Source: a virus
Virus record (IMG/VR): IMGVR_UViG_3300021185_001846
Location: 1 to 25,237 of that record
Reading direction: 5' to 3' (one strand)
Length of the DNA stretch: 25,237 nucleotides
A program made the translations under genes and the position numbers. Positions 5,140 through 21,765 of the stretch are shown piece by piece (positions within the stretch are counted from its first letter, which is position 1; each line of letters opens with the position of its first letter). The notes below the pieces were generated by a model. The model saw only the letters and a list, made by a program, of their open reading frames with translations, was not told the origin of the DNA and searched no databases.

Positions 5140-7179
5140 ATGGCTTATACAGAGAAGTGGCAGACTAATCCCACCGCCGGTGCTGCAATAAACTTTACAT
5201 TCCCATATATTAAAGAATCTGATGTTAAAGTAGAGCTAAATGGTGCTCTACTTAGTAACTCAGGAACAACTAAATACTCACAAGCAACAACTAGCATAAC
5301 ACTTCTAGCCTCTTATTTCACAGGTGGTAATGCCCTTGTATCTTCCGATATAGTAAGGGTTTATAGGGATACAGATGTAGATGCTTCTGTATCTACCTTT
5401 TACCCTGGTTCAGCTATTAGATCTGGTGATCTAAACGATAACTTCACTCAAAGTCTATATACAGCACAAGAATCAGAAGAAAGTGCTGAAGATGCTTTGA
5501 GGGCTACTAATGCTTTTATCGCTACTACAGCAGATGAAGGTACTACATGGACACTAAAAGGTAATAATACTAACTCTAGTACTGACCCTAAAGGGGTTGG
5601 CTATGCAGTTACTACATCAGAAGCAGCTAATACTAAATCAGATGCTGCTGTATTAACTGCTAATGCTGCAGATGTTATTGCTGATGATGCAGCAGATGAT
5701 GTTAAACGATGGATTAAAGATGGTGATGGTACAGATACAGCAGGTAATGAAGATGATGCTGACTTTACCGCAAGGCCACTTAAACCTCAAGGCGTACCTT
5801 ATGCAGTAGCTCAAGCGACTGCAGCTGTATCTTCTGCTGCTAGTGCAAATACTACTGCAGCTAGTGCAGTTGTATCTGCTTCTACTGCTAATACTGTAGC
5901 AGCTGCTGCTGTAGTAACTGCTAATGCTGCCTTCCAGAGGGACGGTACTACTACAATGACAGGTGGTATTGCTTTTGAAGGAGCTTCAAATGATAATCAT
6001 GAGACGACGCTAACAGTTGTAGATCCTACAGCTGATAGAACTATTACTTTACCTAATGAAACAGGTACAGTAATCACTTCAGCTGGTACTAATGTTATTG
6101 ATTCTGATCATTATGTTGATGGATCAATTGATAACGTACACATGTCAGTAAACTCTGTTGATAGTGATCAATATGTAGACGGAAGTATAGATGGAGTACA
6201 TATAGCTAATGATGCTATAGATAGCCAGCACTATGCTGCTGGTTCAATTGATAATGAGCATATAGCTGATGGTGCAATTGATTCAGCTGCTTTAAGTGAT
6301 GCTACTGTTATTACTAATAGTGAGCAAGCATCAGCTACTGCTAATGACACGTCATTCCTCACTTCCAGTGCATCTGATGCTAGATACTTCTTACAGAATA
6401 GCACTGAGACATTAAAGGATGGTGTATCTTGGGCATCTACTGATGCTTATATAGCAACAGCAGCAGCTATTGATGACCGTGTAGCTTCATTAGTAAATGA
6501 GGTTGGTGGTTTTGTAGCTATTGCCAATGAAGGAAGCTTCCCAACAACTAACCCTGATATTAATGACAACACTGGTACTGTTGTTTCTATTACATCTTTA
6601 AGTGCTGATAGAACAGCTAGCGGTAGTGGTGTATTAACAACAGGATTCACAACAACTGGTAGTGTAGCAGTTACTATTACTGGATGTACTAACAACCAAG
6701 TATATAAGCAAGGTTATGGACTCCAAGTTGAAACAACTTCTACTTTAAATACCTATACATTTGTAAGGTATGTACCACAGACAAGCGATGTTATAACTAT
6801 AGCAGCTGCTGCTACTAATATTAATACCGTAGCAGGTATTGCTTCCCATGTAACTACTGTAGCAGGTATTAGCGGAAATGTAACTACAGTTGCTGGAAAT
6901 AACGCTAATATAACTACTTGTGCTACTAATATAAGTAATATTAACAGTGCATCAGGACATGCAACTACAGCCACAACAAAGGCAACAGAAGCAGCTTCAT
7001 CCGCTACCGCAGCCGCAACAAGTGCTACTGCAGCAGCTTCATCTACTACCGCAGCTGCAACCAGTGCTACTTCAGCAGCTGGAGCAGTAACAGCATTAAA
7101 CACCCTTTCTTATTATAAAAACTTAGGATCAATTGCGGATTCCGCAGGAACAACATCAGATTATGGAGCTATTGCTTAA
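5140..7179 (+). CDS. Tail fibre protein with T7 gp17-type N-terminal domain
   Basis: This is a 679-residue protein. Residues 1-110 match the phage T7 tail-fibre N-terminal domain: MAYTEKWQTNPT, FPYIKESDVKVELNG, DIVRVYRDT and PGSAIRSGDLNDNF. That domain binds the tail tube and adaptor. Residues 110-265 are Ala-rich with heptad-like spacing, probably a trimeric coiled coil. Residues 268-315 (GTTTMTGGIAFEG ... RTITLPNETGT) resemble a phage-fibre beta element. Three 20-residue repeats follow at 320-379. The C-terminal third is rich in Ala, Thr and Asn with VTTVAG and ATAAATSATAAASS runs, likely coiled coil. No receptor-binding tip or chaperone domain is visible, so this looks like the proximal half of a fibre whose distal half is the next gene. 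The ATG abuts the previous TAA with no spacer, and the downstream gene abuts in the same way. Confidence 0.85.
   Translation: MAYTEKWQTNPTAGAAINFTFPYIKESDVKVELNGALLSNSGTTKYSQATTSITLLASYFTGGNALVSSDIVRVYRDTDVDASVSTFYPGSAIRSGDLNDNFTQSLYTAQESEESAEDALRATNAFIATTADEGTTWTLKGNNTNSSTDPKGVGYAVTTSEAANTKSDAAVLTANAADVIADDAADDVKRWIKDGDGTDTAGNEDDADFTARPLKPQGVPYAVAQATAAVSSAASANTTAASAVVSASTANTVAAAAVVTANAAFQRDGTTTMTGGIAFEGASNDNHETTLTVVDPTADRTITLPNETGTVITSAGTNVIDSDHYVDGSIDNVHMSVNSVDSDQYVDGSIDGVHIANDAIDSQHYAAGSIDNEHIADGAIDSAALSDATVITNSEQASATANDTSFLTSSASDARYFLQNSTETLKDGVSWASTDAYIATAAAIDDRVASLVNEVGGFVAIANEGSFPTTNPDINDNTGTVVSITSLSADRTASGSGVLTTGFTTTGSVAVTITGCTNNQVYKQGYGLQVETTSTLNTYTFVRYVPQTSDVITIAAAATNINTVAGIASHVTTVAGISGNVTTVAGNNANITTCATNISNINSASGHATTATTKATEAASSATAAATSATAAASSTTAAATSATSAAGAVTALNTLSYYKNLGSIADSAGTTSDYGAIA
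6097..6276 (+). repeat. Three tandem 60-base units coding a 20-residue fibre repeat
   Basis: Three consecutive units of 20 codons begin with IDSDHYVDGSIDNVH, VDSDQYVDGSIDGVH and IDSQHYAAGSIDNEH, followed by a partial fourth unit starting IDSAAL. Asp/His/Ser positions are conserved while synonymous positions vary, so the repeat is maintained at the protein level. It probably forms a rod segment within the fibre shaft. Confidence 0.8.
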
Positions 7180-10100
7180 ATGACTACACAAATACAACGC
7201 CGCAAAGGCACAACAGCACAGCATGCTTCATTTACAGGTGCTGAAGCTGAAATCACAATCGATACTGATAAGGAAACAGTTGTTGTTCATGATGGATCTA
7301 CAGCTGGTGGATTCCCACTAATGAGAGAAGGTCAAGCAAATGATGCAACCATCAGCGGTCTCACTGTTGGTAAAGGTTTAGCAGGAGTTGCTACTAATAC
7401 TGTAGTAGGTAAAGATGCACTAAATGCTAATACAACAGGTGCTGATAATGTAGCAATTGGTAGTGATGCTTTAGGTGCAAACACTACTGCTAGTTATAAT
7501 ACAGCAGTTGGTCACATGGCACTCAGATTAACTACTACTGGTGCACGTAATTCAGCATTTGGTAGAACTGCACTTGATAATAATAGTACGGGTTCATATA
7601 ATACAGCATGTGGAATGCATGCTCTTCTGAGTAACACTACTGCTAGTTATAATACAGCAGTTGGTTACATGTCACTTACATCAAACACAACTGGTGCTTC
7701 CAACGTAGCAAGTGGTTATGAAGCACTCTACGCAAACACTACCGGTAATCAAAACGTAGCAAGTGGGCGTCATGCACTCTACACAAACACTACCGGTTCT
7801 AATAACACAGCAACTGGATATCTTTCACTCCGATATAACACTACCGGTTCTGAAAACGTAGCAGTAGGTCTAAATGCACTAAGGGGAAATACTACTGCTT
7901 CCTACAACACAGCAGTAGGTAGTGAAGCACTTCAAGCAAACACTACCGGTTCTAACAACACAGCAAGCGGTTATAAAGCACTAAAATCAAACACTACCGG
8001 TGGTTCCAGCACAGCAAGTGGATATCAAGCACTGTTCAAAAACACAACCGGTGCTGAGAACACAGCATGTGGAGCGGTGTCTCTCTATGAAAACACTACT
8101 GGTGGATATAACACAGCAGTAGGAAGAGCAGCACTCCACTCAAACACTACCGGTGCAAATAATACAGCAGTTGGACATAGTGCACTTGTATCGAATACTA
8201 CTGCTGCTGCTAATGCAGCATTTGGTCATTTTGCACTGAGATACAACACTACTGGTTATTCAAACACTGCGATTGGTTATTATGCATTAGAAGATAATAC
8301 TACTGGTTACAGCAATACAGCAGTAGCATCTCCTTGTCTGGAAAGTAACACTACAGGTGTTCAGAACACAGCAGTCGGTCGGTATTCACTAAGTGCAAAC
8401 ACTACCGCTTCTTATAATAGTGCATTAGGTTATTATGCTCTGTTTAGTAATACTACCGGTGCTTACAACGTAGCAGTTGGTACGTATTCACTCCAAACAC
8501 ATACTACCGGTTCCCACAACACAGCCATTGGGGTGGCTTCACTCTTCTCCAACTCTACCGGTGCTGATAACACAGCAGTAGGTAGTAATGCCCTTTACCA
8601 TGCTACAAGTTCTTCTAATACAGCAGTAGGTAGGTTGGCACTCTACGGAAATACTACCGGTGCTGATAATACAGCCGTAGGTAGAAGTGCACTTCAAAAT
8701 AACACTACCGGTGCTAGGAACACAGCAAGTGGGAGGCATGCACTCTACGCAAACACTACCGGTAATGACAACACAGCAAATGGTTGGCATGTACTAGAAT
8801 CAAACACTACCGGTGCTAACAACACAGCAAGCGGTTATAAAGCACTAGAAGCAAATACTGCTGGTACTAACAACACAGCGAGTGGTTATCAAACACTCTT
8901 ATATAACACTACTGGCGGTAACAACACAGCAACTGGTGTTAATGCACTTAAAGCAAATACTACCGGTGATAACAACTCAGCAGTAGGATATGAAGCGCTC
9001 AACTCAAACACTACTGGTGCCGCAAACGTAGCAGTAGGTTACAAAGCACTGAAACTTACTAGCACTGGTAATTATAACACAGCAGTAGGATATAATGCAA
9101 TGATCACCAACTCCACCGGTGAGAGGAATGCAGCATATGGTTATGAGTCAATGGCTTTAAATACTACCGGTTACCGAAATACAGGGTGTGGCATGTATTC
9201 GCTATACAACAACACTACCGGTGTTCAAAACGTAGCAGTTGGCTATTCGACACTACAAAACAACACAACCGGTGGTAACAATGTAGGGATTGGTTTTGAA
9301 GCTCTTATGTCTAATACTACTGCTAGTTATAACGTAGCAGTTGGTAGACAAGCACTTACCTTCAACACAACCGGTACTAATAACTCAGCATTTGGTTACC
9401 TTGCATTAGGCGCTAACACTACCGGTAACCACAACACAGCAAGCGGTTATTATGCACTCAAAGCAAACACTACCGGTGGTAATAACACAGCAGTTGGTAA
9501 AGAAGCACTTGCTACAAATACTTCTGGACAATCCAACACAGCAGTTGGATATGAAGCATTATACACGAATAATGGTAATTACAATGTAGCAGTCGGTGAT
9601 TGGGCGGGTGCAGCAAACACTACTGGTTATGCAAATTCGTCAGTTGGATATCAATCTACATACTCAAACACTACCGGATATCGTAATGCAGTATTAGGTT
9701 ACCAAGCACTATATTGGAACACAACAGGTCATAGTAATGTAGCAGTTGGATATGCTGCTCTTGCTCCAAATACCACTGCAGCATATAACACAGCAGTAGG
9801 TAATCAGGCTCTAGGTTCAAACACTACCGGAGGCAATAACACAGCTAGTGGTGGTGGTACACTCTACTCAAACACTACCGGTGCTGAAAACACAGCAAAT
9901 GGTTATAATGCACTCTATGCTAATACTACCGCTTCCCACAACACAGCAAGTGGTTTTCGAGCACTCTATTCAAACACTACCGGAGGCGCCAATACAGCAA
10001 GTGGATATAAAGCACTTTATACTACTACTACAGGCGCTCATAACACAGCGTTTGGGTATCAAGCAATATATTCCAATACCACTGGTAATTACAATACATC

Positions 10101-10680
10101 AATTGGTGGGAATTCATTATATACCTGTTCAACAGGACTTGAAAACACAGCAATAGGCCGTGATTCATTATTTTCATTAACTACTGGTAGGAATAACGTT
10201 GCCCTAGGAGATGCCGCTGGTTATATGATAACGACTGGTGATGCTAATATTGTTATTGGATCTAGAAATGGTTCTGGTAACTATGCACCTGTTAATAACC
10301 CTTCAACCAGTAGCAATAAAGTTGTTATAGGTCATACAAGTATTGCTAATGCTTATGTCCAAGTTGACTGGACTATCACTTCCGATGAACGGGATAAGAT
10401 GAACTTTGCATCTATTCCACATGGTTTAGATTTTGTAAATAAGTTAAAGCCAACGGCTTACCAATATAAAGAGTCACGTGATTCTAACACACCTAATGGA
10501 TCTAAGAGGTATGGATTTAAAGCACAGGAAATATTAGCTTTAGAAGATGCAAATGATGCAGTAATCATTGATAATACTGATACAGATAAACTATATTTAA
10601 ATACTGATGCATTAGTACCAGTACTAGTACAAGCTATTCAAGAGCTATCGGCTCAAGTAAAAGAACTACAAACACCATGA
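7180..10680 (+). CDS. Distal tail-fibre/receptor-binding protein: 56 beta-roll-like repeats plus Peptidase_S74 chaperone
   Basis: This is a 1166-residue protein. Residues 1-72 form a short N-terminal domain (TTQIQRRKGTTAQHASFTGAEAEITIDTDKE is split here as TTQIQRRKGT and AEITIDTDKE, ending HDGSTAGGFP), typical of phage fibre and adhesin N-termini. Residues 73-1022 are 56 tandem repeats of 17 residues with consensus NTAVGYxALxxNTTGxx. These resemble the left-handed beta-roll of YadA-like trimeric adhesin heads. The C-terminus is a Peptidase_S74 intramolecular chaperone: SDERDK supplies Ser1068 and Lys1073, spaced as in endosialidase, followed by GLDFVNKLKPTAYQY, RYGFKAQEI and a final coiled coil. 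By family knowledge the chaperone aids trimerisation and cuts itself off just before the Ser, releasing 99 residues here. The ATG abuts the TAA of the other fibre gene, so the two probably form one long fibre that determines host range. Confidence 0.85.
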   Translation: MTTQIQRRKGTTAQHASFTGAEAEITIDTDKETVVVHDGSTAGGFPLMREGQANDATISGLTVGKGLAGVATNTVVGKDALNANTTGADNVAIGSDALGANTTASYNTAVGHMALRLTTTGARNSAFGRTALDNNSTGSYNTACGMHALLSNTTASYNTAVGYMSLTSNTTGASNVASGYEALYANTTGNQNVASGRHALYTNTTGSNNTATGYLSLRYNTTGSENVAVGLNALRGNTTASYNTAVGSEALQANTTGSNNTASGYKALKSNTTGGSSTASGYQALFKNTTGAENTACGAVSLYENTTGGYNTAVGRAALHSNTTGANNTAVGHSALVSNTTAAANAAFGHFALRYNTTGYSNTAIGYYALEDNTTGYSNTAVASPCLESNTTGVQNTAVGRYSLSANTTASYNSALGYYALFSNTTGAYNVAVGTYSLQTHTTGSHNTAIGVASLFSNSTGADNTAVGSNALYHATSSSNTAVGRLALYGNTTGADNTAVGRSALQNNTTGARNTASGRHALYANTTGNDNTANGWHVLESNTTGANNTASGYKALEANTAGTNNTASGYQTLLYNTTGGNNTATGVNALKANTTGDNNSAVGYEALNSNTTGAANVAVGYKALKLTSTGNYNTAVGYNAMITNSTGERNAAYGYESMALNTTGYRNTGCGMYSLYNNTTGVQNVAVGYSTLQNNTTGGNNVGIGFEALMSNTTASYNVAVGRQALTFNTTGTNNSAFGYLALGANTTGNHNTASGYYALKANTTGGNNTAVGKEALATNTSGQSNTAVGYEALYTNNGNYNVAVGDWAGAANTTGYANSSVGYQSTYSNTTGYRNAVLGYQALYWNTTGHSNVAVGYAALAPNTTAAYNTAVGNQALGSNTTGGNNTASGGGTLYSNTTGAENTANGYNALYANTTASHNTASGFRALYSNTTGGANTASGYKALYTTTTGAHNTAFGYQAIYSNTTGNYNTSIGGNSLYTCSTGLENTAIGRDSLFSLTTGRNNVALGDAAGYMITTGDANIVIGSRNGSGNYAPVNNPSTSSNKVVIGHTSIANAYVQVDWTITSDERDKMNFASIPHGLDFVNKLKPTAYQYKESRDSNTPNGSKRYGFKAQEILALEDANDAVIIDNTDTDKLYLNTDALVPVLVQAIQELSAQVKELQTP
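7396..10245 (+). repeat. 56-unit tandem coding repeat, 51-base period
   Basis: I aligned 56 units by hand from N73 to A1022 of the fibre protein. All are 17 codons except two of 16 (units 24 and 43). The constant core is Asn1, Ala3, Gly5, Ala/Ser8, Leu9, Asn12, Thr13-Thr14, Gly/Ala15. Positions 6, 7, 10, 11, 16 and 17 vary strongly (Tyr, His, Arg, Lys, Glu, Phe, Trp). At DNA level the string AACACTACCGGT recurs many times, so recombination between units is plausible. Confidence 0.95.
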
Positions 10681-10847
10681 CAGACATCACCCAACGAGCA
10701 CAAGCTCTGCTACAGGAAAAAGAACAACTTATCGCCCGTCTACATCAGGTGGACGGCGCTCTAATTGAATTAGATCGTTTAGTTACAGAGGATCAGACTG
10801 AAGATCCAGATACAGATACAGATACAGAAACCGAAATCCCTAACTAA
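10677..10847 (+). CDS. Small acidic coiled-coil protein, unknown function (56 aa)
   Basis: The ATG overlaps the TGA of the fibre gene (ATGA), a typical coupling signal. The frame gives MTDITQRAQALLQEKEQLIA followed by RLHQVDGALIELDRL and an acidic Asp-Thr repeat tail (DPDTDTDTETE). The first 36 residues are a predicted amphipathic coiled coil. The gene fills the space between the fibre and the next ORF almost completely and uses ordinary phage codons, so I regard it as real. Function is unknown. Its location after the fibre suggests a structural accessory or chaperone role, but that is a guess. Confidence 0.65.
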   Translation: MTDITQRAQALLQEKEQLIARLHQVDGALIELDRLVTEDQTEDPDTDTDTETEIPN

Positions 10848-10856
10848 TTATTTATC

Positions 10857-11108
10857 ATGGAAGAAAGAACAGCAGACGAAGTAGCAGCAATCTTTGCAGC
10901 AGCTGGAGACAGTGTTACTGCAATCAACACTGACAAAACAACTGATGAAACAGCTGAAGACTATAAAGATAAAATTCAACGTAATGTAGATCACCTAGAG
11001 CTAATCAAAGCCTATAAGAAAGTAGATGGTACTACTTCTATTTGGGGTAGTGAGAGCTTCACTGCTATTGATGCAGCAGTAACGGCAGGCAAAGCTAAGC
11101 TAGCTTAG
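10857..11108 (+). CDS. Hypothetical protein (83 aa)
   Basis: This 83-residue soluble, mostly helical protein starts MEERTADEVAAIFAAAGDSV and contains YKDKIQRNVDHLELIKAY. No membrane segment, cysteine or catalytic motif is visible. It begins 9 bases after the previous stop. A 14-base palindrome at 11095-11108 encodes its last four residues and includes the stop. I do not recognise the family. Confidence 0.65.
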   Translation: MEERTADEVAAIFAAAGDSVTAINTDKTTDETAEDYKDKIQRNVDHLELIKAYKKVDGTTSIWGSESFTAIDAAVTAGKAKLA

Positions 11109-11578
11109 TGGTTGAACCGCCGATCTTCCCTTCTTTAAACTTACCCAATCAGTTAATACCTGAACCACCCATCATCCCTGAGCCTATCCTGTCGCTGCCT
11201 ACAGCAGACATTCCAAGCTATGAGCCTATGATTGCTCCTCCAGGTGAATTAAGACCTCCTGTAGGCGTACCTGGAGAGGATGAGGAAAGTGTAAAAGAGA
11301 ACCCAAAACCTACATCTCCAGAGGTAAGGAAAATAACTATACCCTGGACTGATATAGAAGTACCTGTTCCTAAGGAAGAGATCGTAGTTACTGCAGCCAC
11401 CACTGCTGCAGTTTCTGTTGTCGCTACCTTAACAGCTACCTCTATCTTTAACTATTTGGTTAAGGTATTTAAACCTGTATTTATGCAGGCTGTAAAACGT
11501 ATTCAGAAGAAACTTGGAAGAGAACAAACCGGAAAAACAGAAGAACGTGTTGGAGAAACTGAAGGACGGGATGGATGA
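11108..11578 (+). CDS. Proline-rich single-pass membrane protein, unknown function
   Basis: The gene starts at GTG 11108, sharing one base with the previous stop. The 156-residue product has a very Pro-rich N-terminal 75 residues (PPIFPSLNLP, PEPPIIPEP, APPGELRPP). A hydrophobic Ala/Thr/Val segment follows at about 92-118, and then a basic C-terminus (KRIQKKLGR). This suggests an extended Pro-rich arm attached to a membrane anchor. It lies directly before the holin-like gene, between fibre and terminase, where T7-like phages place lysis genes. A spanin or envelope-bridging role is possible but unproven: there is no lipobox and no signal-peptidase site. No Shine-Dalgarno sequence is seen before the GTG, so the start depends on coupling or lies slightly elsewhere. 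Confidence 0.6.
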   Translation: MVEPPIFPSLNLPNQLIPEPPIIPEPILSLPTADIPSYEPMIAPPGELRPPVGVPGEDEESVKENPKPTSPEVRKITIPWTDIEVPVPKEEIVVTAATTAAVSVVATLTATSIFNYLVKVFKPVFMQAVKRIQKKLGREQTGKTEERVGETEGRDG

Positions 11579-11798
11579 CAAAGAAGAACAGATTCTTATC
11601 CTATCCACCTTCGTACGGCTAGGGGTAGTCGTATGGGCAGGGTTCATCATTTCTCTAAATTATATTGAGATCCCAGGATTGGGACAACAAACCCCTAAAG
11701 ATATTACATTCCCTGCTTCTATTTTTACTGGAGCATTAGCTACATTTGGGTTACAGCCTAATAACAATAATGGTAAGGAGAAAAAGAAGAGTGATTAA
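11571..11798 (+). CDS. Putative holin-like small membrane protein
   Basis: I chose the ATG at 11571, preceded by GAAGGA (11561-11566), over an in-frame TTG at 11514 that would overlap the previous gene by 65 bases. The product has 75 residues: a short acidic N-terminus (MDDKEEQ), a hydrophobic helix (LSTFVRLGVVVWAGFIISLN), a linker with IEIPG and DITFP, a second hydrophobic stretch (ASIFTGALATFGL) and a charged C-terminus (NNNNGKEKKKSD). Two membrane segments, a charged tail and a position between fibre and small terminase fit the T7 gene 17.5 holin slot. There is no recognisable sequence identity to T7 gp17.5, so the call rests on architecture and position. Confidence 0.55.
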   Translation: MDDKEEQILILSTFVRLGVVVWAGFIISLNYIEIPGLGQQTPKDITFPASIFTGALATFGLQPNNNNGKEKKKSD

Positions 11799-12147
11799 AC
11801 TATGGCTCCTACCCTTACTACTATTAGCAACAACAGTTCAAGCAAATCAAATAACACCTTCCTTCACACAGGGAAGTATGCAAGCAACAACGACAACAAC
11901 TCAAGCAGTAACAGAGACAATCGATACCGAAGTCTTTGGAGGCGCTTACAACAGTTGGTCAGGAACCAACGTAGTACCGAGTGCAGCGATAAGAGATGCG
12001 AACACAACATTCACAGTTCATACAGCAGGGGATCAGTTTCAACTAGAGACTGTAACCAGAGCTGCAGGAGTAGTGGAAACAATCGACATCGATCGCACAA
12101 TAAACACAACAGCTACTACTACATCCTTATCTATCTTCTCTCAGTAA
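11770..12147 (+). CDS. Predicted exported small protein, unknown function
   Basis: Candidate starts are ATG 11770 (MVRRKRRVIKLW) and GTG 11791, the latter 10 bases after AAGGAG (11775-11780). Either gives a clear signal peptide: a basic n-region, hydrophobic WLLPLLLLATTV and a cleavage motif VQA followed by NQ. The mature part, about 100 residues, is rich in Thr, Asn and Val and looks like beta structure, with no cysteines. The gene overlaps the end of the holin-like gene. Its sequence is also open in the -1 frame for its whole length from 11802. It is probably periplasmic in the host. It lacks a lipobox, so it is not an evident outer spanin. Confidence 0.6.
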   Translation: MVRRKRRVIKLWLLPLLLLATTVQANQITPSFTQGSMQATTTTTQAVTETIDTEVFGGAYNSWSGTNVVPSAAIRDANTTFTVHTAGDQFQLETVTRAAGVVETIDIDRTINTTATTTSLSIFSQ

Positions 12148-12611
12148 CTCCTGCTTATGCAGAGGACGTATATAACAATGCTGCACCTTCCAGTACTGCT
12201 ACAGGTAACGTCACAAACCAAGCTGTCCAGTTCCAGAATAATGGAGCGCCAAGTAGACAGAACTATGGTGGTGGTGTTGCCTGTAATGGCACTACGATGA
12301 CAGTTACACCATTCTATATGGGTAATGATTCAATACCTTTTGACAATGAATCATATGTTAGAAGTAATAACTGGGGAGCACAGCTTAGTTTTATGGTCCC
12401 TTTAGACTTTTCTACGGTAGCTAGATGCAAATCTATAGCTAAAAGACAAGAGGAGAAACTAAGGTTAGATTATGAATTAGTTAGAGCACTTAAATGTGCA
12501 GAGATACAGCAGAAGGGATTTACCTTTCGTCCAGGGTCACGTGTTGAACACTTATGTAATGACATCGTACCTATCGTCCTATTAGAAAAACAACTTACTA
12601 AAAAACCATGA
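12123..12611 (+). CDS. Predicted exported protein with no canonical start codon
   Basis: The frame encodes a likely signal peptide (ILIYLLSVTPAYA then ED) followed by a mature domain. That domain contains VTNQAVQFQNNGAPSRQNYG, VACNGTTMTVTPFYMG, WGAQLSFMVPLDFS and RQEEKLRLDYELVRALKC, with four cysteines in all, and resembles a conserved hypothetical protein of cyanophages as far as I recall. No ATG, GTG or TTG lies at a sensible place before the signal peptide. The listed start, ATC 12123, is provisional. The frame is open back to ATG 11802, but that would add 107 residues rich in Ser, Asn and Arg that are a frame shadow of the preceding gene. Alternatives are an ATC start coupled to the upstream gene, -1 frameshifting from it, or a sequence error. 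Confidence 0.6.
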   Translation: MLIYLLSVTPAYAEDVYNNAAPSSTATGNVTNQAVQFQNNGAPSRQNYGGGVACNGTTMTVTPFYMGNDSIPFDNESYVRSNNWGAQLSFMVPLDFSTVARCKSIAKRQEEKLRLDYELVRALKCAEIQQKGFTFRPGSRVEHLCNDIVPIVLLEKQLTKKP

Positions 12612-12706
12612 GTACACTATCTGATCAACGTGAAGCAGCAGCTAAAGCAGCAGCTAAGAAGACTACAAAGAAACCCGCTAAGAAAGCTCCTAAAGAGGAA
12701 GAGTGA
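12608..12706 (+). CDS. Lysine/alanine-rich 32-residue peptide
   Basis: The ATG overlaps the preceding TGA (ATGA), and the gene's own TGA shares a base with the next ATG. The product has 32 residues, mainly Ala and Lys, in a helical arrangement (REAAAKAAAKKTTKKPAKK) like the tail of a histone H1-type protein. It may bind nucleic acid. It could also exist mainly to couple translation to the small terminase, since it contains that gene's ribosome binding site (AGAGGAAGAG). Function unknown. Confidence 0.5.
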   Translation: MSTLSDQREAAAKAAAKKTTKKPAKKAPKEEE

Positions 12707-12945
12707 TGACTAAGAAAGCTACAGAGGAGCAATTCAATGAACTACACAACCTAGTTACTGAAGAGTTCCTGAAACGAGTAAAGAGCGGAGAAGCCTCTGC
12801 TCATGAATTAAAAGCAGCCTGTGATTGGCTGGTTAAGAATGATATCAGTGGTGTAGCTTATGAAGGAAACCCGTTACATAAACTCGCTGATATCATGCCA
12901 AAAGTAGACCCTGAATTAGTAAAGAGGAGGTTATATAAGGTATGA
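12706..12945 (+). CDS. terS: Terminase small subunit (DNA packaging protein A), T7 gp18-like
   Basis: The start at ATG 12706 follows a good Shine-Dalgarno (AGAGGAAGAG, 12693-12703). An in-frame GTG at 12703 is less likely. The 79 residues form a small helical protein: FNELHNLVTEEFLKRVKSGE, ASAHELKAACDWLVKNDISG, then IMPKVDPELVKRRL. The pattern of a first helix, KSGEA, a second helix and a short acidic/basic tail is that of podovirus small terminase subunits, which recognise concatemer DNA and recruit the large subunit. Size (T7 gp18 has 89) and position between holin and large terminase agree. It overlaps its neighbours at both ends, so production is translationally coupled. Confidence 0.7.
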   Translation: MTKKATEEQFNELHNLVTEEFLKRVKSGEASAHELKAACDWLVKNDISGVAYEGNPLHKLADIMPKVDPELVKRRLYKV

Positions 12946-13370
12946 GTACTGATGAAATATATAGTTATATGGAAAAACGCAGTCACCCTGATCTTTTCAG
13001 TAGTACTGATAAAGATACCTATATAGGCTCTCCTAATTGGTCGGGTACTGATATATTTGATGGATTACAGATAGATGGTAGACCTCCAAACTCGACAGAA
13101 GCCTTACCGGGTTACGACAACGACACTAAACCTGGCACATCTCCAATAATACCAGGTACAAAAGCACAGAATGGATTAAGTCCAGAGACTGCAGAAGCTT
13201 GGGGAGCAGGTATAACGGCAATTAATCTTTTAAGTAAGATGATTAGAGATCACAAAAATCAACCTACTACTAAGCCCTTAGGTAAAGCTGAAGTTAAAGA
13301 AGCTAGAAATAAGGCGGTAAGTAAATATCTAAACCCGAAGAAGAAGAAAAAGAAGAAGTACTTCGCATGA
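12942..13370 (+). CDS. Hypothetical protein with Lys-rich C-terminus
   Basis: The start overlaps the previous stop (ATGA). The 142-residue product has an N-terminal half rich in Asp, Pro, Gly and Ser (NWSGTDIFDG, GRPPNSTEALPGYDND), probably disordered. A helical stretch follows (SPETAEAWGAGITAINLLSK), and the C-terminus is strongly basic and ends in a run of lysines (13338-13357). No known domain was recognised. The basic tail and the following very basic gene suggest DNA or RNA contact. Confidence 0.6.
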   Translation: MSTDEIYSYMEKRSHPDLFSSTDKDTYIGSPNWSGTDIFDGLQIDGRPPNSTEALPGYDNDTKPGTSPIIPGTKAQNGLSPETAEAWGAGITAINLLSKMIRDHKNQPTTKPLGKAEVKEARNKAVSKYLNPKKKKKKKYFA

Positions 13371-13606: not shown

Positions 13607-15105
13607 TGCCAGTAATAGGAAGTGGTGGTGGTCCTAATATAGAAGGACGTGACGAACAGGTGAAACCAGCAAAGAAAGTGCATCAAAGTCAGATAGGAGG
13701 GCCAGGTAACCGAAGTGCTGTAAAGAGAGGTACGTTACGGGATATACTTTATAAGATACCGCCTGCTGTAAAAGCAGATTTTAAAAGAAGAGAAGCTGAA
13801 GTAGAATTCGCTAAAGAATCTAAGAAATGGTCAGGTAACCTCGATGGAGCACACAAAAAATATGGCCACTTAATACATAGAAAGAGGCTCCAAGCAATAT
13901 ACGATAACCCTAAAAAATACATAAACCAGTTAGGTATAGGTGCACATTCTGCTATTAAAAATCAGCAAGACTTAGCTTCTATGAAAGGGTTTGAAAAATA
14001 TGTTAGAAGAACTCTAGATGAGGCAGCTAAAAAAACTAAAAAGCTTAATACATATTTATTCCCAGGAGGACATAAACTTAGTAATATAGTTAGAAGTATA
14101 CACTTCGGGCATGGACAAGGTTTAATGGCTGCTGGCCCAAACATAGGAGGATCACATACTGGACAATACCCACTTGATAATATGAGGCAGAGTAAGTGGT
14201 CTGGCCCTAGTAAGGGTGCAATGGGAGCTGACGGGTGGTATAAAGTAGATGATGCATATTCAGCAATAAATCATCCTCAATTCTGGGATGAAGCTTGGTC
14301 AAACTACATCTTAGGCGAAGATATGCCTATATTAGTAGACTTAACTGATGAAGCTAAGAATAAAGTACTTCATAGAGGCTACAATCCAGATAGAATAATC
14401 ATCGAGCAGGATAACATCAATCTAAATAGAATAGATGATGATGTAGCTGAATATATACCATTTAAACGTAAGGGACCACCTCCAAAAGGTGAAATACTTA
14501 AAATCGAAGACCCGTCTGGTCAAAGAAGACCTAGTAATGTACCAGGCATTGAAGAAGCATTCGATTCTATACCTGGAGCTAAACAGTTAAGAATAGCATC
14601 TAAAAATCCATTGGTTAGAAAAGCGGCTATAGTAGCTGGTGTTGCGACACCATTTCTAGGCCCATTAGGTGTAATAGCTAGTGAAGCTCAAATAGGCGAT
14701 AGGGAGAGAGAAGTAGCTGAAAATCCAAACGATCCAGTACTTAAATTCCAGTTAGAACTAGATAAAGCAACATATAATGCTGATTTAGCAGCTTTAGAGG
14801 GTGAACCAATCCCTGAAGCTGTTAGTCTGGTTACAGGATTAGCTAGTCTAAGTTTAGATGCTGGTAGATCTTTAACAAAAACCTCAGAGAAATTCATTAA
14901 AGAACAAACATCTGGGAATATACCTGATCATACAGATGTTGTAAAAAGAACACAAGAACGAAACAGTGGACTTTCTGAAGAGGATAGAAATATATATAAA
15001 GCTGGCGGTGGTAATGCTGCTATGACTAAGTACGGATGGGATATAAAACAAACAATGGCTCAAGGTTATAAAAACCTACTATTACAAACACCAGATTACG
15101 AATGA
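13606..15105 (+). CDS. Large hypothetical protein, possible virion/ejected protein
   Basis: The start at ATG 13606 lies 5 bases after AGGAGG (13595-13600). An in-frame GTG at 13603 is also possible. The 499-residue protein is basic at the N-terminus ([27 protein letters not shown]). It has a middle part with many His, Tyr and Gly residues ([17 protein letters not shown]), and a hydrophobic Ala/Gly segment near 345-365 ([20 protein letters not shown]) that may insert in a membrane. No enzyme motif was identified. Its place in the late operon between packaging and psbA genes and its lone membrane-active-looking segment suggest a structural or injected protein, which is inference. It overlaps psbA by 4 bases (ATGA). 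Confidence 0.65.
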
Positions 15106-16178
15106 CACTAACCCTAACAGAACAGACAACAGATAAGTGGGAAGAGCTATGTCAATGGGTCACATCAACCGAGAACCGGCTATATGTCGGTTGGTTTGGT
15201 GTGCTCATGATCCCCACCTTAGCAGTAGCAACAACCGCATACATTCTAGCATTCATTGCGGCTCCTCCCGTTGACATCGACGGCATTAGGGAGCCAGTCG
15301 CAGGATCTTTACTTTATGGAAACAATATTATTTCTGGCGCTATTGTGCCTAGCTCCAACGCTATTGGGCTTCATTTCTATCCCATTTGGGAAGCGATTTC
15401 TTTAGATGAATGGCTTTACAATGGCGGACCGTACCAGCTCATTGTATTTCACTTCCTGATTGGCACCTCAGCGTACCTAGGAAGGCAGTGGGAGCTATCT
15501 TATAGGTTAGGTATGCGTCCTTGGAATGCAGTGGCATTCTCGGCTCCCCTAGCGGCAGCCTTTGCAGTATTTTTTGTGTACCCAATTGGACAAGGAAGTT
15601 TTAGCGACGGGATGCCGCTTGGCATCTCAGGCACGTTTAATTTTATGTTTGTCTTCCAAGCAGAGCATAACATTCTCATGCATCCTTTTCATATGCTTGG
15701 GGTTGCCGGTGTATTCGGCGGTGCTCTTTTCTCTGCTATGCATGGGTCGCTTGTCACAAGTAGCCTCATACGTGAGACATCAGAAGATATAAGTCAGAAC
15801 TATGGCTACAAGTTCGGACAAGAAGAAGAGACATACAATATTGTAGCTGCTCATGGATACTTCGGTAGATTAATTTTCCAATATGCATCGTTCAACAACT
15901 CAAGGAGTCTTCACTTCTTCCTCGCTGCTTGGCCTGTTATTGCCATCTGGTTTACTAGCATTGGTGTTAGCACTATGGCTTTCAACCTTAACGGGTTCAA
16001 CTTCAATCAGTCCATTGTAAATAGTGAAGGTAGGGTTATTCCTACTTGGGCTGACGTATTAAATAGACAGAATCTAGGTTTTGAGGTAATGCATGAACGT
16101 AATGCTCATAACTTCCCATTAGACCTAGCAGCTAATAACATTGTACCAATTGCACTTAAAACACCCGCTATAGGTTAA
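15102..16178 (+). CDS. psbA: Photosystem II D1 protein (viral auxiliary photosynthesis gene)
   Basis: The gene encodes a full-length D1 of 358 residues; cyanobacterial D1 has 360. All key residues are present at standard number minus one: Gln129 (the 130 position, in the low-light Gln form), redox Tyr160, His189, Asp169 and Glu188 at the Mn cluster, iron ligands His214 and His271, Ser263 at the QB site, and His331, Glu332 and Asp341. The C-terminal extension after Ala343 has 15 residues starting ANNIV, for removal by the host CtpA protease. D1 turns over quickly in light, and viral copies keep photosystem II working during infection. It overlaps the upstream gene by 4 bases and is therefore transcribed with late genes. 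GC is uneven: about 50 percent in the first 650 bases and about 38 percent in the last 350. Confidence 0.98.
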
Positions 16179-20907: not shown

Positions 20908-20917
20908 TCCCTTTATT

Positions 20918-20989
20918 GGTCTATTAGTGTAGTGGTTAACACGCTAGCCTGTCACGCTGGTATCACGAGTTCAAATCTCGTATAGACCG
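20918..20989 (+). tRNA. tRNA-Asp (anticodon GTC)
   Basis: A complete cloverleaf is present. The acceptor stem GGTCTAT pairs with ATAGACC, and the D-stem GTGT pairs with ACAC. The anticodon stem CTAGC pairs with GCTGG (one U-G), with loop CTGTCAC giving anticodon GTC at 20951-20953. The T-stem ACGAG pairs with CTCGT around TTCAAAT. The discriminator base is G and no CCA is encoded. It begins 10 bases after the previous stop codon. Confidence 0.95.
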
Positions 20990-20991
20990 TT

Positions 20992-21694: not shown

Positions 21695-21765
21695 GCGGGT
21701 ATAGTTTAAAGGTAAAACTATAGTCTTCCAAACTGTTGTTATCGGTTCGATTCCGATTACCCGCT
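21695..21765 (+). tRNA. tRNA-Gly (anticodon TCC)
   Basis: A complete cloverleaf is present. The acceptor stem GCGGGTA pairs with TACCCGC, and the D-stem GTTT pairs with AAAC. The anticodon stem ATAGT pairs with ACTGT (one U-G), with loop CTTCCAA giving anticodon TCC at 21727-21729. The T-stem ATCGG pairs with CCGAT around TTCGATT. The discriminator base is T and no CCA is encoded. It decodes GGA/GGG; GGA is visibly common in the phage genes. Confidence 0.95.

What the first reader, a model, noticed from the sequence alone, without database searches (positions are those of the whole stretch)
7396..10245. Fibre made of 56 near-perfect 17-residue repeats with an S74 chaperone
A 950-residue uninterrupted array with NTAVGYxALxxNTTG consensus resembles YadA-type trimeric adhesin heads but with a 17-residue period. 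It forms most of a phage fibre and ends in a self-cleaving chaperone. Variable positions 6-7, 10-11 and 16-17 carry Tyr, His, Trp, Arg and Lys, so each coil presents different surface residues. DNA-level identity of AACACTACCGGT across units would allow unequal recombination to lengthen or shorten the fibre and shift host range.
Basis: partly seen in the sequence, partly recalled or inferred. Interest (0 to 1): 0.55.

Follow-up and report, generated by a model that had tools for sequence, protein, structure and literature searches.

The report
Phage fibre of 56 adhesin-like coils
A virus that probably infects marine cyanobacteria carries a long attachment fibre built from 56 stacked 17-residue coils, a common viral building block shaped like bacterial adhesin heads, and close relatives have swapped stretches of these coils and changed their number.

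Summary
The repeat array is real. One 1166-residue gene (7180-10680) contains 56 units (54 of 17 residues, 2 of 16) exactly at 7396-10245, between an Mtd_N anchor domain and a C-terminal S74 chaperone with an intact SDxxxK motif. "Near-perfect" is wrong: mean identity to consensus is 63%, and AACACTACCGGT occurs in 13 of 56 units. AlphaFold2 (pLDDT 88.5) predicts a beta-solenoid with one coil per unit. Its best solved matches are trimeric-adhesin heads (CbpF Z 16.9; YadA Z 14.1), though a curli subunit and left-handed beta-helix enzymes also score 14-15. The module is common: 160 distinct arrays with 4-186 units in fetched loci; 134 of 50,697 phage records match. The useful new result concerns variation. 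A contig otherwise almost identical to the window (2 differences in 1854 nt of the gene) has a 193-nt block of the array replaced by a divergent block one unit longer. Three other groups of near-identical contigs also break inside the array. This looks like exchange with divergent arrays, not slippage. Against generality, nine SPO1-like isolates all keep 10 units. It is a new member of a known kind. Receptor binding and host-range effects are untested.

The parts
5140..7179 (+). gp17-like tail fibre gene upstream (679 aa), possible attachment partner
   Evidence: Pfam Phage_T7_tail, residues 13-124, E 1.8e-7; PHROG tail fibre families. Partnership is inferred from order only
7180..10680 (+). 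array fibre gene, 1166 aa
   Evidence: ORF; PHROG virion structural / tail spike families 23837, 6002, 4636
7192..7302 (+). Mtd_N anchor domain, residues 5-41
   Evidence: Pfam PF18454 E 1e-13; phmmer to Bordetella Mtd chains
7396..10245 (+). 56-unit array, residues 73-1022
   Evidence: unit parse and column statistics; predicted beta-solenoid
8569..8616 (+). unit 24, one of two 16-residue units
9535..9582 (+). unit 43, the other 16-residue unit
9782..9974 (+). block replaced by a divergent block 51 nt (one unit) longer in the near-identical contig L059
   Evidence: alignment; 2 differences in 1854 nt outside the block, 43 substitutions plus the insertion inside
10246..10380 (+). 45-residue tip between array and S74, residues 1023-1067
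10381..10677 (+). S74 chaperone domain from Ser1068 (SDERDK), 99 residues
   Evidence: Pfam PF13884 E 9.4e-9; motif; PDB profile matches

Best explanation
The gene encodes an elongated tail adhesin of a T7-like virus that probably infects cyanobacteria. Mtd_N attaches it to the tail or to the neighbouring gp17-like fibre (inferred). [quoted passage not shown] The C-terminal S74 domain drives trimer folding and cuts itself off before Ser1068 (inferred from motif and family), leaving a shaft in which the array is 950 of 1067 residues plus a 45-residue tip. From the published rise of the BpaC head, 56 layers would span about 24 nm (inferred). Conserved core residues hold the coil; positions 6, 7, 10, 11, 16 and 17 vary and probably form the outer surface that contacts the host (inferred). 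Because units share core codons and register, recombination with other arrays can replace runs of units in frame, changing surface and length together. Such replacements are seen between near-identical contigs; that they alter host binding is inferred.
For: Mtd_N; S74 with SDxxxK, S, D and K of the motif invariant in 33 of 33 rows; one predicted coil per 17 residues, pLDDT 88.5; best solved matches are adhesin heads; Gly5 column invariant in 12 of 12 units over 78 rows. Replaced block with one unit more in L059, L060 identical to the window over 9239-13332, breaks inside the array in L063/L066 and L256/L259 and across it in L120/L126. Array variable positions average 2.81 bits against 1.25 for the tip and 0.59 for S74 in 24 non-redundant relatives. 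Other fibre genes occupy the same slot in syntenic relatives.
Against: Left-handed beta-helix enzymes and a curli subunit score nearly as high as the adhesin heads. No Pfam or NCBIfam model matches the array and a PDB profile search found no adhesin head. Trimer and cleavage are not shown. Nine SPO1-like isolates keep 10 units. In 22 of 40 non-identical pairs the unit number is the same, and in 14 of 18 groups with near-identical flanks the array is unchanged (grouped by hand). Contigs come from metagenome assemblies.
Confidence: 0.72

Rival explanations
1. The array is only a spacer. Host recognition lies in the 45-residue tip that S74 cleavage would expose, and variation in the array is tolerated rather than selected.
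For: In a Bdellovibrio S74 fibre the tip just before the cleavage site has a cleft proposed to bind ligand (PMC10769870, passages). The tip here has a variable stretch, residues 1028-1036, up to 3.14 bits.
Against: The tip as a whole is far less variable (1.25 bits) than the variable array positions (2.81 bits). CbpF binds its receptors through a passenger made of such heads and a stalk (PMC6346709, passages).
Confidence: 0.3
2. Length and content change mainly by unequal crossing-over or slippage within one array.
For: Adjacent units are slightly more alike than random order gives (nt z 3.1), and codon choice agrees within columns beyond chance (0.548 against 0.432).
Against: No two units are identical, the longest exact repeat is 33 nt and the best unit pair is 86% alike at DNA level and 29 units apart. 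The replaced block in L059 is divergent, not a copy of its neighbours.
Confidence: 0.17
3. The differences between contigs are assembly errors in a repetitive gene.
For: All are metagenome contigs; some arrays (L256/L259) contain near-identical stretches of 74-77 nt.
Against: In the window array the longest exact repeat is 33 nt. L060, a separate contig, repeats the window's version exactly. L059 returns to identity on both sides of the block. Cultured isolates HTVC111P and HTVC112P also differ, 31 against 27 units, though they are more diverged.
Confidence: 0.12
4. A diversity-generating retroelement rewrites the array, as for Bordetella Mtd.
For: The N-terminal domain is Mtd_N.
Against: No reverse transcriptase among the 16 ORFs scanned with Pfam (16 of 29 listed). 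The L059 block differs at all codon positions (15, 13, 15), 27 of 43 substitutions involve A, and it carries an extra unit. The window is a fragment, so a retroelement elsewhere is not excluded.
Confidence: 0.02

Closest known systems
YadA-like heads of trimeric autotransporter adhesins (YadA, BoaA, UspA1, CbpF, BpaC)
   Same: Predicted fold: one coil per repeat, VIA-align Z 12.0-16.9; invariant Gly and xNTAVG in place of NSVAIG (register is mine).
   Different: 17 residues per coil instead of 14-15; not recognised by Pfam models; S74 chaperone at the C-terminus rather than a membrane anchor.
Phage fibres with the same repeat and S74 (PHROG 23837, 6002, 4636; P-SSM2 fibre; HTVC111P and HTVC112P)
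   Same: Same repeat and mostly S74.
   Different: The window's version has Mtd_N in front, seen by the same test in only 4 of 186 array ORFs (L001, which is the window itself, L084, L085, L264).
T7-like pelagiphage fibre with YadA-like domain and S74 in metaviromic islands (PMC3909814)
   Same: S74 and YadA-like domain; under-recruiting region in metagenomes (passages).
   Different: There the domain is fused to the T7-like N-terminus; here it is a separate gene behind gp17.
Bordetella phage Mtd
   Same: N-terminal Mtd_N domain (E 1e-13).
   Different: Beyond residue 103 the best match ends; array and S74 instead; no retroelement seen in the fragment.
Bdellovibrio MAT S74 fibres (PMC10769870)
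   Same: SDxxxK motif, trimeric fibre with chaperone end (passages).
   Different: Bacterial proteins; shaft not reported in those passages as 17-residue repeats.

Membership tests
YadA-like head repeats (Ylhead / Hep_Hag) | beta-roll with one coil per repeat | tested here: met
   AlphaFold2 strand at positions 2-4 of each of 12 units, pLDDT 88.5; CbpF Z 16.9, 2.5 A over 171 residues; YadA Z 14.1
YadA-like head repeats (Ylhead / Hep_Hag) | completely conserved Gly at position 8 (PMC9543794) | tested here: met
   Gly in 55 of 56 units; invariant in 12 of 12 columns over 78 rows; register set by me
YadA-like head repeats (Ylhead / Hep_Hag) | about 14 residues per repeat (15 in UspA1) | tested here: not met
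   17 in 54 of 56 units; 3931 of 4260 spacings in relatives are 17. Filed as fold-like, not as a member
YadA-like head repeats (Ylhead / Hep_Hag) | match to the family's sequence models | tested here: not met
   no Pfam family on the array at E up to 10
YadA-like head repeats (Ylhead / Hep_Hag) | trimer | not testable with these tools
   only single chains could be predicted
Peptidase S74 intramolecular chaperone | domain match and SDxxxK motif | tested here: met
   PF13884 35.9 bits against cut-off 22; SDERDK at 1068; profile matches to solved S74 proteins
Peptidase S74 intramolecular chaperone | self-cleavage before the Ser | not testable with these tools
   needs an experiment
Major tropism determinant (Mtd) | Mtd_N domain | tested here: met
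   PF18454 51.4 bits against cut-off 26.3
Major tropism determinant (Mtd) | variable C-terminal lectin-type domain (feature recalled) | tested here: not met
   best match ends at residue 103; second stretch has negative score; C-terminus is S74
Major tropism determinant (Mtd) | neighbouring reverse transcriptase and template repeat (feature recalled) | tested here: inconclusive
   none in 16 of 29 ORFs scanned, but the window is a fragment

The most novel reading that the evidence does not exclude
The 17-residue coil is a general exchange unit of phage adhesins. Because core residues, codons and register are shared across unrelated phages, two arrays can recombine in frame at many units, so phages reshuffle surface and fibre length by block exchange without a dedicated mutator, doing by recombination what retroelements do for Mtd.
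Probability: 0.3. Interest if true: 0.6.

Novelty: new member of a known kind. Interest (0 to 1): 0.34.

Why it matters
The module is widespread in marine phages and occurs in other viruses and bacteria. If runs of coils are traded in frame between arrays, fibre length and surface become a readable, testable record of host adaptation. The window and L059 are a pair whose shared part of this gene differs almost only by one such exchange.

Tried and rejected
Pfam and NCBIfam models for the array: none matched; a weak MgpC match on L084 (E 0.0028, below cut-off) was taken as compositional. A PDB profile search with A1 found only S74 proteins and one weak coiled-coil protein. Retroelement diversification was rejected for the L059 block. 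Donor of the L059 block: no near-identical copy; best other hits 62-64% (80 of 136 relatives kept). A search of open-access text for NTAVGY found 0 papers, and one for tail fibre, number of repeats, host range and recombination found 0; this does not show absence from print.

Rows dropped before counts: one search used only ORFs with both ends (138) and left out identical pairs; the alignment for the second model used one block per array with 12 regular units (80 non-redundant); one search kept only pairs with at least 85% flank coverage, which biases against seeing change in flanks. The 45 pairs were grouped by hand into 18 independent groups, leaving out L062/L107, which are the same record. 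The array differs in 4 groups (window/L059, L063/L066, L120/L126, L256/L259); in a fifth (L261/L263) only the non-array part differs; in two (L245/L246, L291/L294) one contig is cut off inside the array, so only the overlap was compared. One search aligned the window and 32 of the 36 fragments listed.

Full report
What is there. The window is a 25,237-base virus record, probably a fragment. It encodes T7-like small and large terminase subunits, a gp17-like fibre, RNA polymerase, ThyX and psbA. Its longest matches in named phages are the terminase genes of Synechococcus and Prochlorococcus podoviruses at 72-75% identity, so the host is probably a marine cyanobacterium (inferred). The gene at 7180-10680 encodes 1166 residues: Mtd_N (5-41), 56 repeat units (73-1022), a 45-residue tip (1023-1067) and an S74 domain starting with SDERDK at 1068.

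The repeat. There are 54 units of 17 and two of 16 residues. Position 1 is Asn in 55 of 56 and position 5 Gly in 55 of 56. Positions 6, 7, 10, 11, 16 and 17 are the most variable. Mean identity to consensus is 63%; no two units are identical; AACACTACCGGT is present in 13 of 56. Shuffled versions of the protein give at most 4 units. Synonymous codons agree within columns more than chance gives (0.548 against 0.432), and neighbours are only slightly more alike than in random order. I read this as an old duplicated array held by its core rather than a freshly amplified one. At the variable positions of the 54 full units, 73 of 324 residues are aromatic, 31 Lys/Arg, 29 Asp/Glu and 13 His.

Fold. 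With 33 sequences, units 45-56 plus S74 gave a mean pLDDT of 65. Foldseek was blank, but VIA-align of 50 chains left 5 chains with Z 2 or more, and all four entries listed are YadA-like adhesin heads. With 78 in-register rows, units 25-36 gave a mean pLDDT of 88.5 and a strand at positions 2-4 of every unit. Best solved chains: CbpF Z 16.9, YadA 14.1, AtaA 13.1, BoaA 12.8, UspA1 12.0. In the same list a curli subunit (Z 15.0) and left-handed beta-helix enzymes such as GlmU and LpxD (Z up to 14.9) score nearly as high. So the fold class is well supported, and kinship with adhesins rests also on the glycine motif. Set against GxNSVAIGAxSxAx, the unit reads xNTAVG for NSVAIG and is three residues longer than 14 (PMC9543794, passages; register mine). 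From that paper's 81.5 A over layers 23-42, 56 layers would be about 24 nm long (inferred). BFVD has 87 hits at E 0.001 or better, including the P-SSM2 fibre and giant-virus proteins.

How common. tblastn finds matches in 134 of 50,697 phage records, 31 with one place covering at least 80% of the query, and in 5 of 72,556 plasmids. Twelve loci came from bacterial genomes. Among the 323 loci held at that point, 175 contain 186 array ORFs, 160 distinct, with 4 to 186 units. Of 4260 spacings up to 24 residues, 3931 are 17. In 113 distinct complete ORFs the median is 24 units, and 10 have 56 or more. Because many loci were fetched with queries of this kind, these are not frequencies in nature. Front ends vary: T7-tail-like, Mtd_N (the window, L084, L085, L264) or others. 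In relatives with the same neighbouring genes (L100, L101, L102; gp16-like protein 61-66% identical; terminase large subunit 98% over 138 residues in L102) no array was found, and other fibre genes fill the slot.

Variation between near-identical contigs. L059 matches the window with no difference over 8634-9781 and two over 9975-10680, but 9782-9974 is replaced by divergent sequence 51 nt longer, one more unit. L059 begins inside the array, so the first part could not be compared. L060 is identical to the window over 9239-13332. L063/L064/L070 (44 units) and L066 (39 units) are 99.9% identical up to a point inside the array, then diverge, with a length difference of 255 nt or 5 units. L256 and L259 are 99.97% identical over 8822 nt up to a break inside the array. 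L120 and L126 differ across the array and adjoining parts by 279 nt, not a whole number of units. Of 40 non-identical pairs of complete ORFs sharing at least 300 nt at 95% or more, unit number differs in 18 and is equal in 22; these pairs are not independent. In 18 independent groups with near-identical flanks the array differs in 4 (grouped by hand). Other pairs share array plus S74 but not the N-terminal part: L086/L087, 100% over 1455 nt, and L069/L071, 98% over 1849 nt. Within one contig, L092, two array genes share 383 nt at 96.6%. Against generality, nine SPO1-like isolates (89-99.8% identical) all have 10 units. Two cultured marine isolates on one host strain, HTVC111P and HTVC112P, have 31 and 27 units, with flanks that align better than the arrays.

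Mechanism. Shown: domains, array, predicted coil, and replaced blocks with number change. Inferred: trimer, cleavage, surface contact, and exchange with other phages' arrays. The replaced block in L059 carries divergent units rather than extra copies, so recombination with a different array explains it better than slippage; the donor was not found. The tip is more conserved (1.25 bits) than the variable array positions (2.81 bits; 24 relatives), which favours the array as contact surface. The tip also has a variable stretch, so this is not decisive.

Prior work. A pelagiphage fibre with T7-like N-terminus and a YadA domain, in a region that under-recruits in metagenomes, was described in 2014 (PMC3909814, passages). 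Layer addition and loss as adaptation was proposed for BpaC (PMC9543794, passages). CbpF groups differ in head repeat number and in receptor preference (PMC6346709, passages). T4 host-range expansion by duplication of a small adhesin domain is known to me only as a title in the reference list of PMC12906663. The kind is therefore known. What is added is the clean window/L059 exchange and the breadth of the 17-residue module.

Noticed in passing
window 12938-13133 (start of gene 12942-13370): A second block that differs between the window and L059 while the DNA on both sides is 96-99% identical; the N-terminal half of the encoded protein, next to the small terminase gene, is replaced.
   Followed up: no
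window 15102-16178, 20917-20990, 21695-21765: psbA lies just before the large terminase gene, and tRNA-Asp and tRNA-Gly genes lie between thyX and the RNA polymerase gene.
   Followed up: no
window 11746-12147 and 11802-12611: Two long ORFs overlap in different frames; the same pair of overlapping ORFs is present in the relative L102 at 7196-7573 and 7228-8031.
   Followed up: no
L246:2166-15245 and L065:1396-9825: Very long array proteins: 4360 aa with 186 units and 2810 aa with 153 units; neither matched the window's S74 or Mtd_N in the phmmer test.
   Followed up: no
L092:1521-4196 and L092:8520-10877: Two of three array genes in one viral contig share 383 nt at 96.6% identity, as if one had copied part of the other.
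   Followed up: partly
L100, L101, L102, between the gp16-like gene and the genes before terminase: Syntenic relatives have quite different fibre genes in this slot: a single 1050-aa fibre in L102, several genes in L100 and L101.
   Followed up: partly
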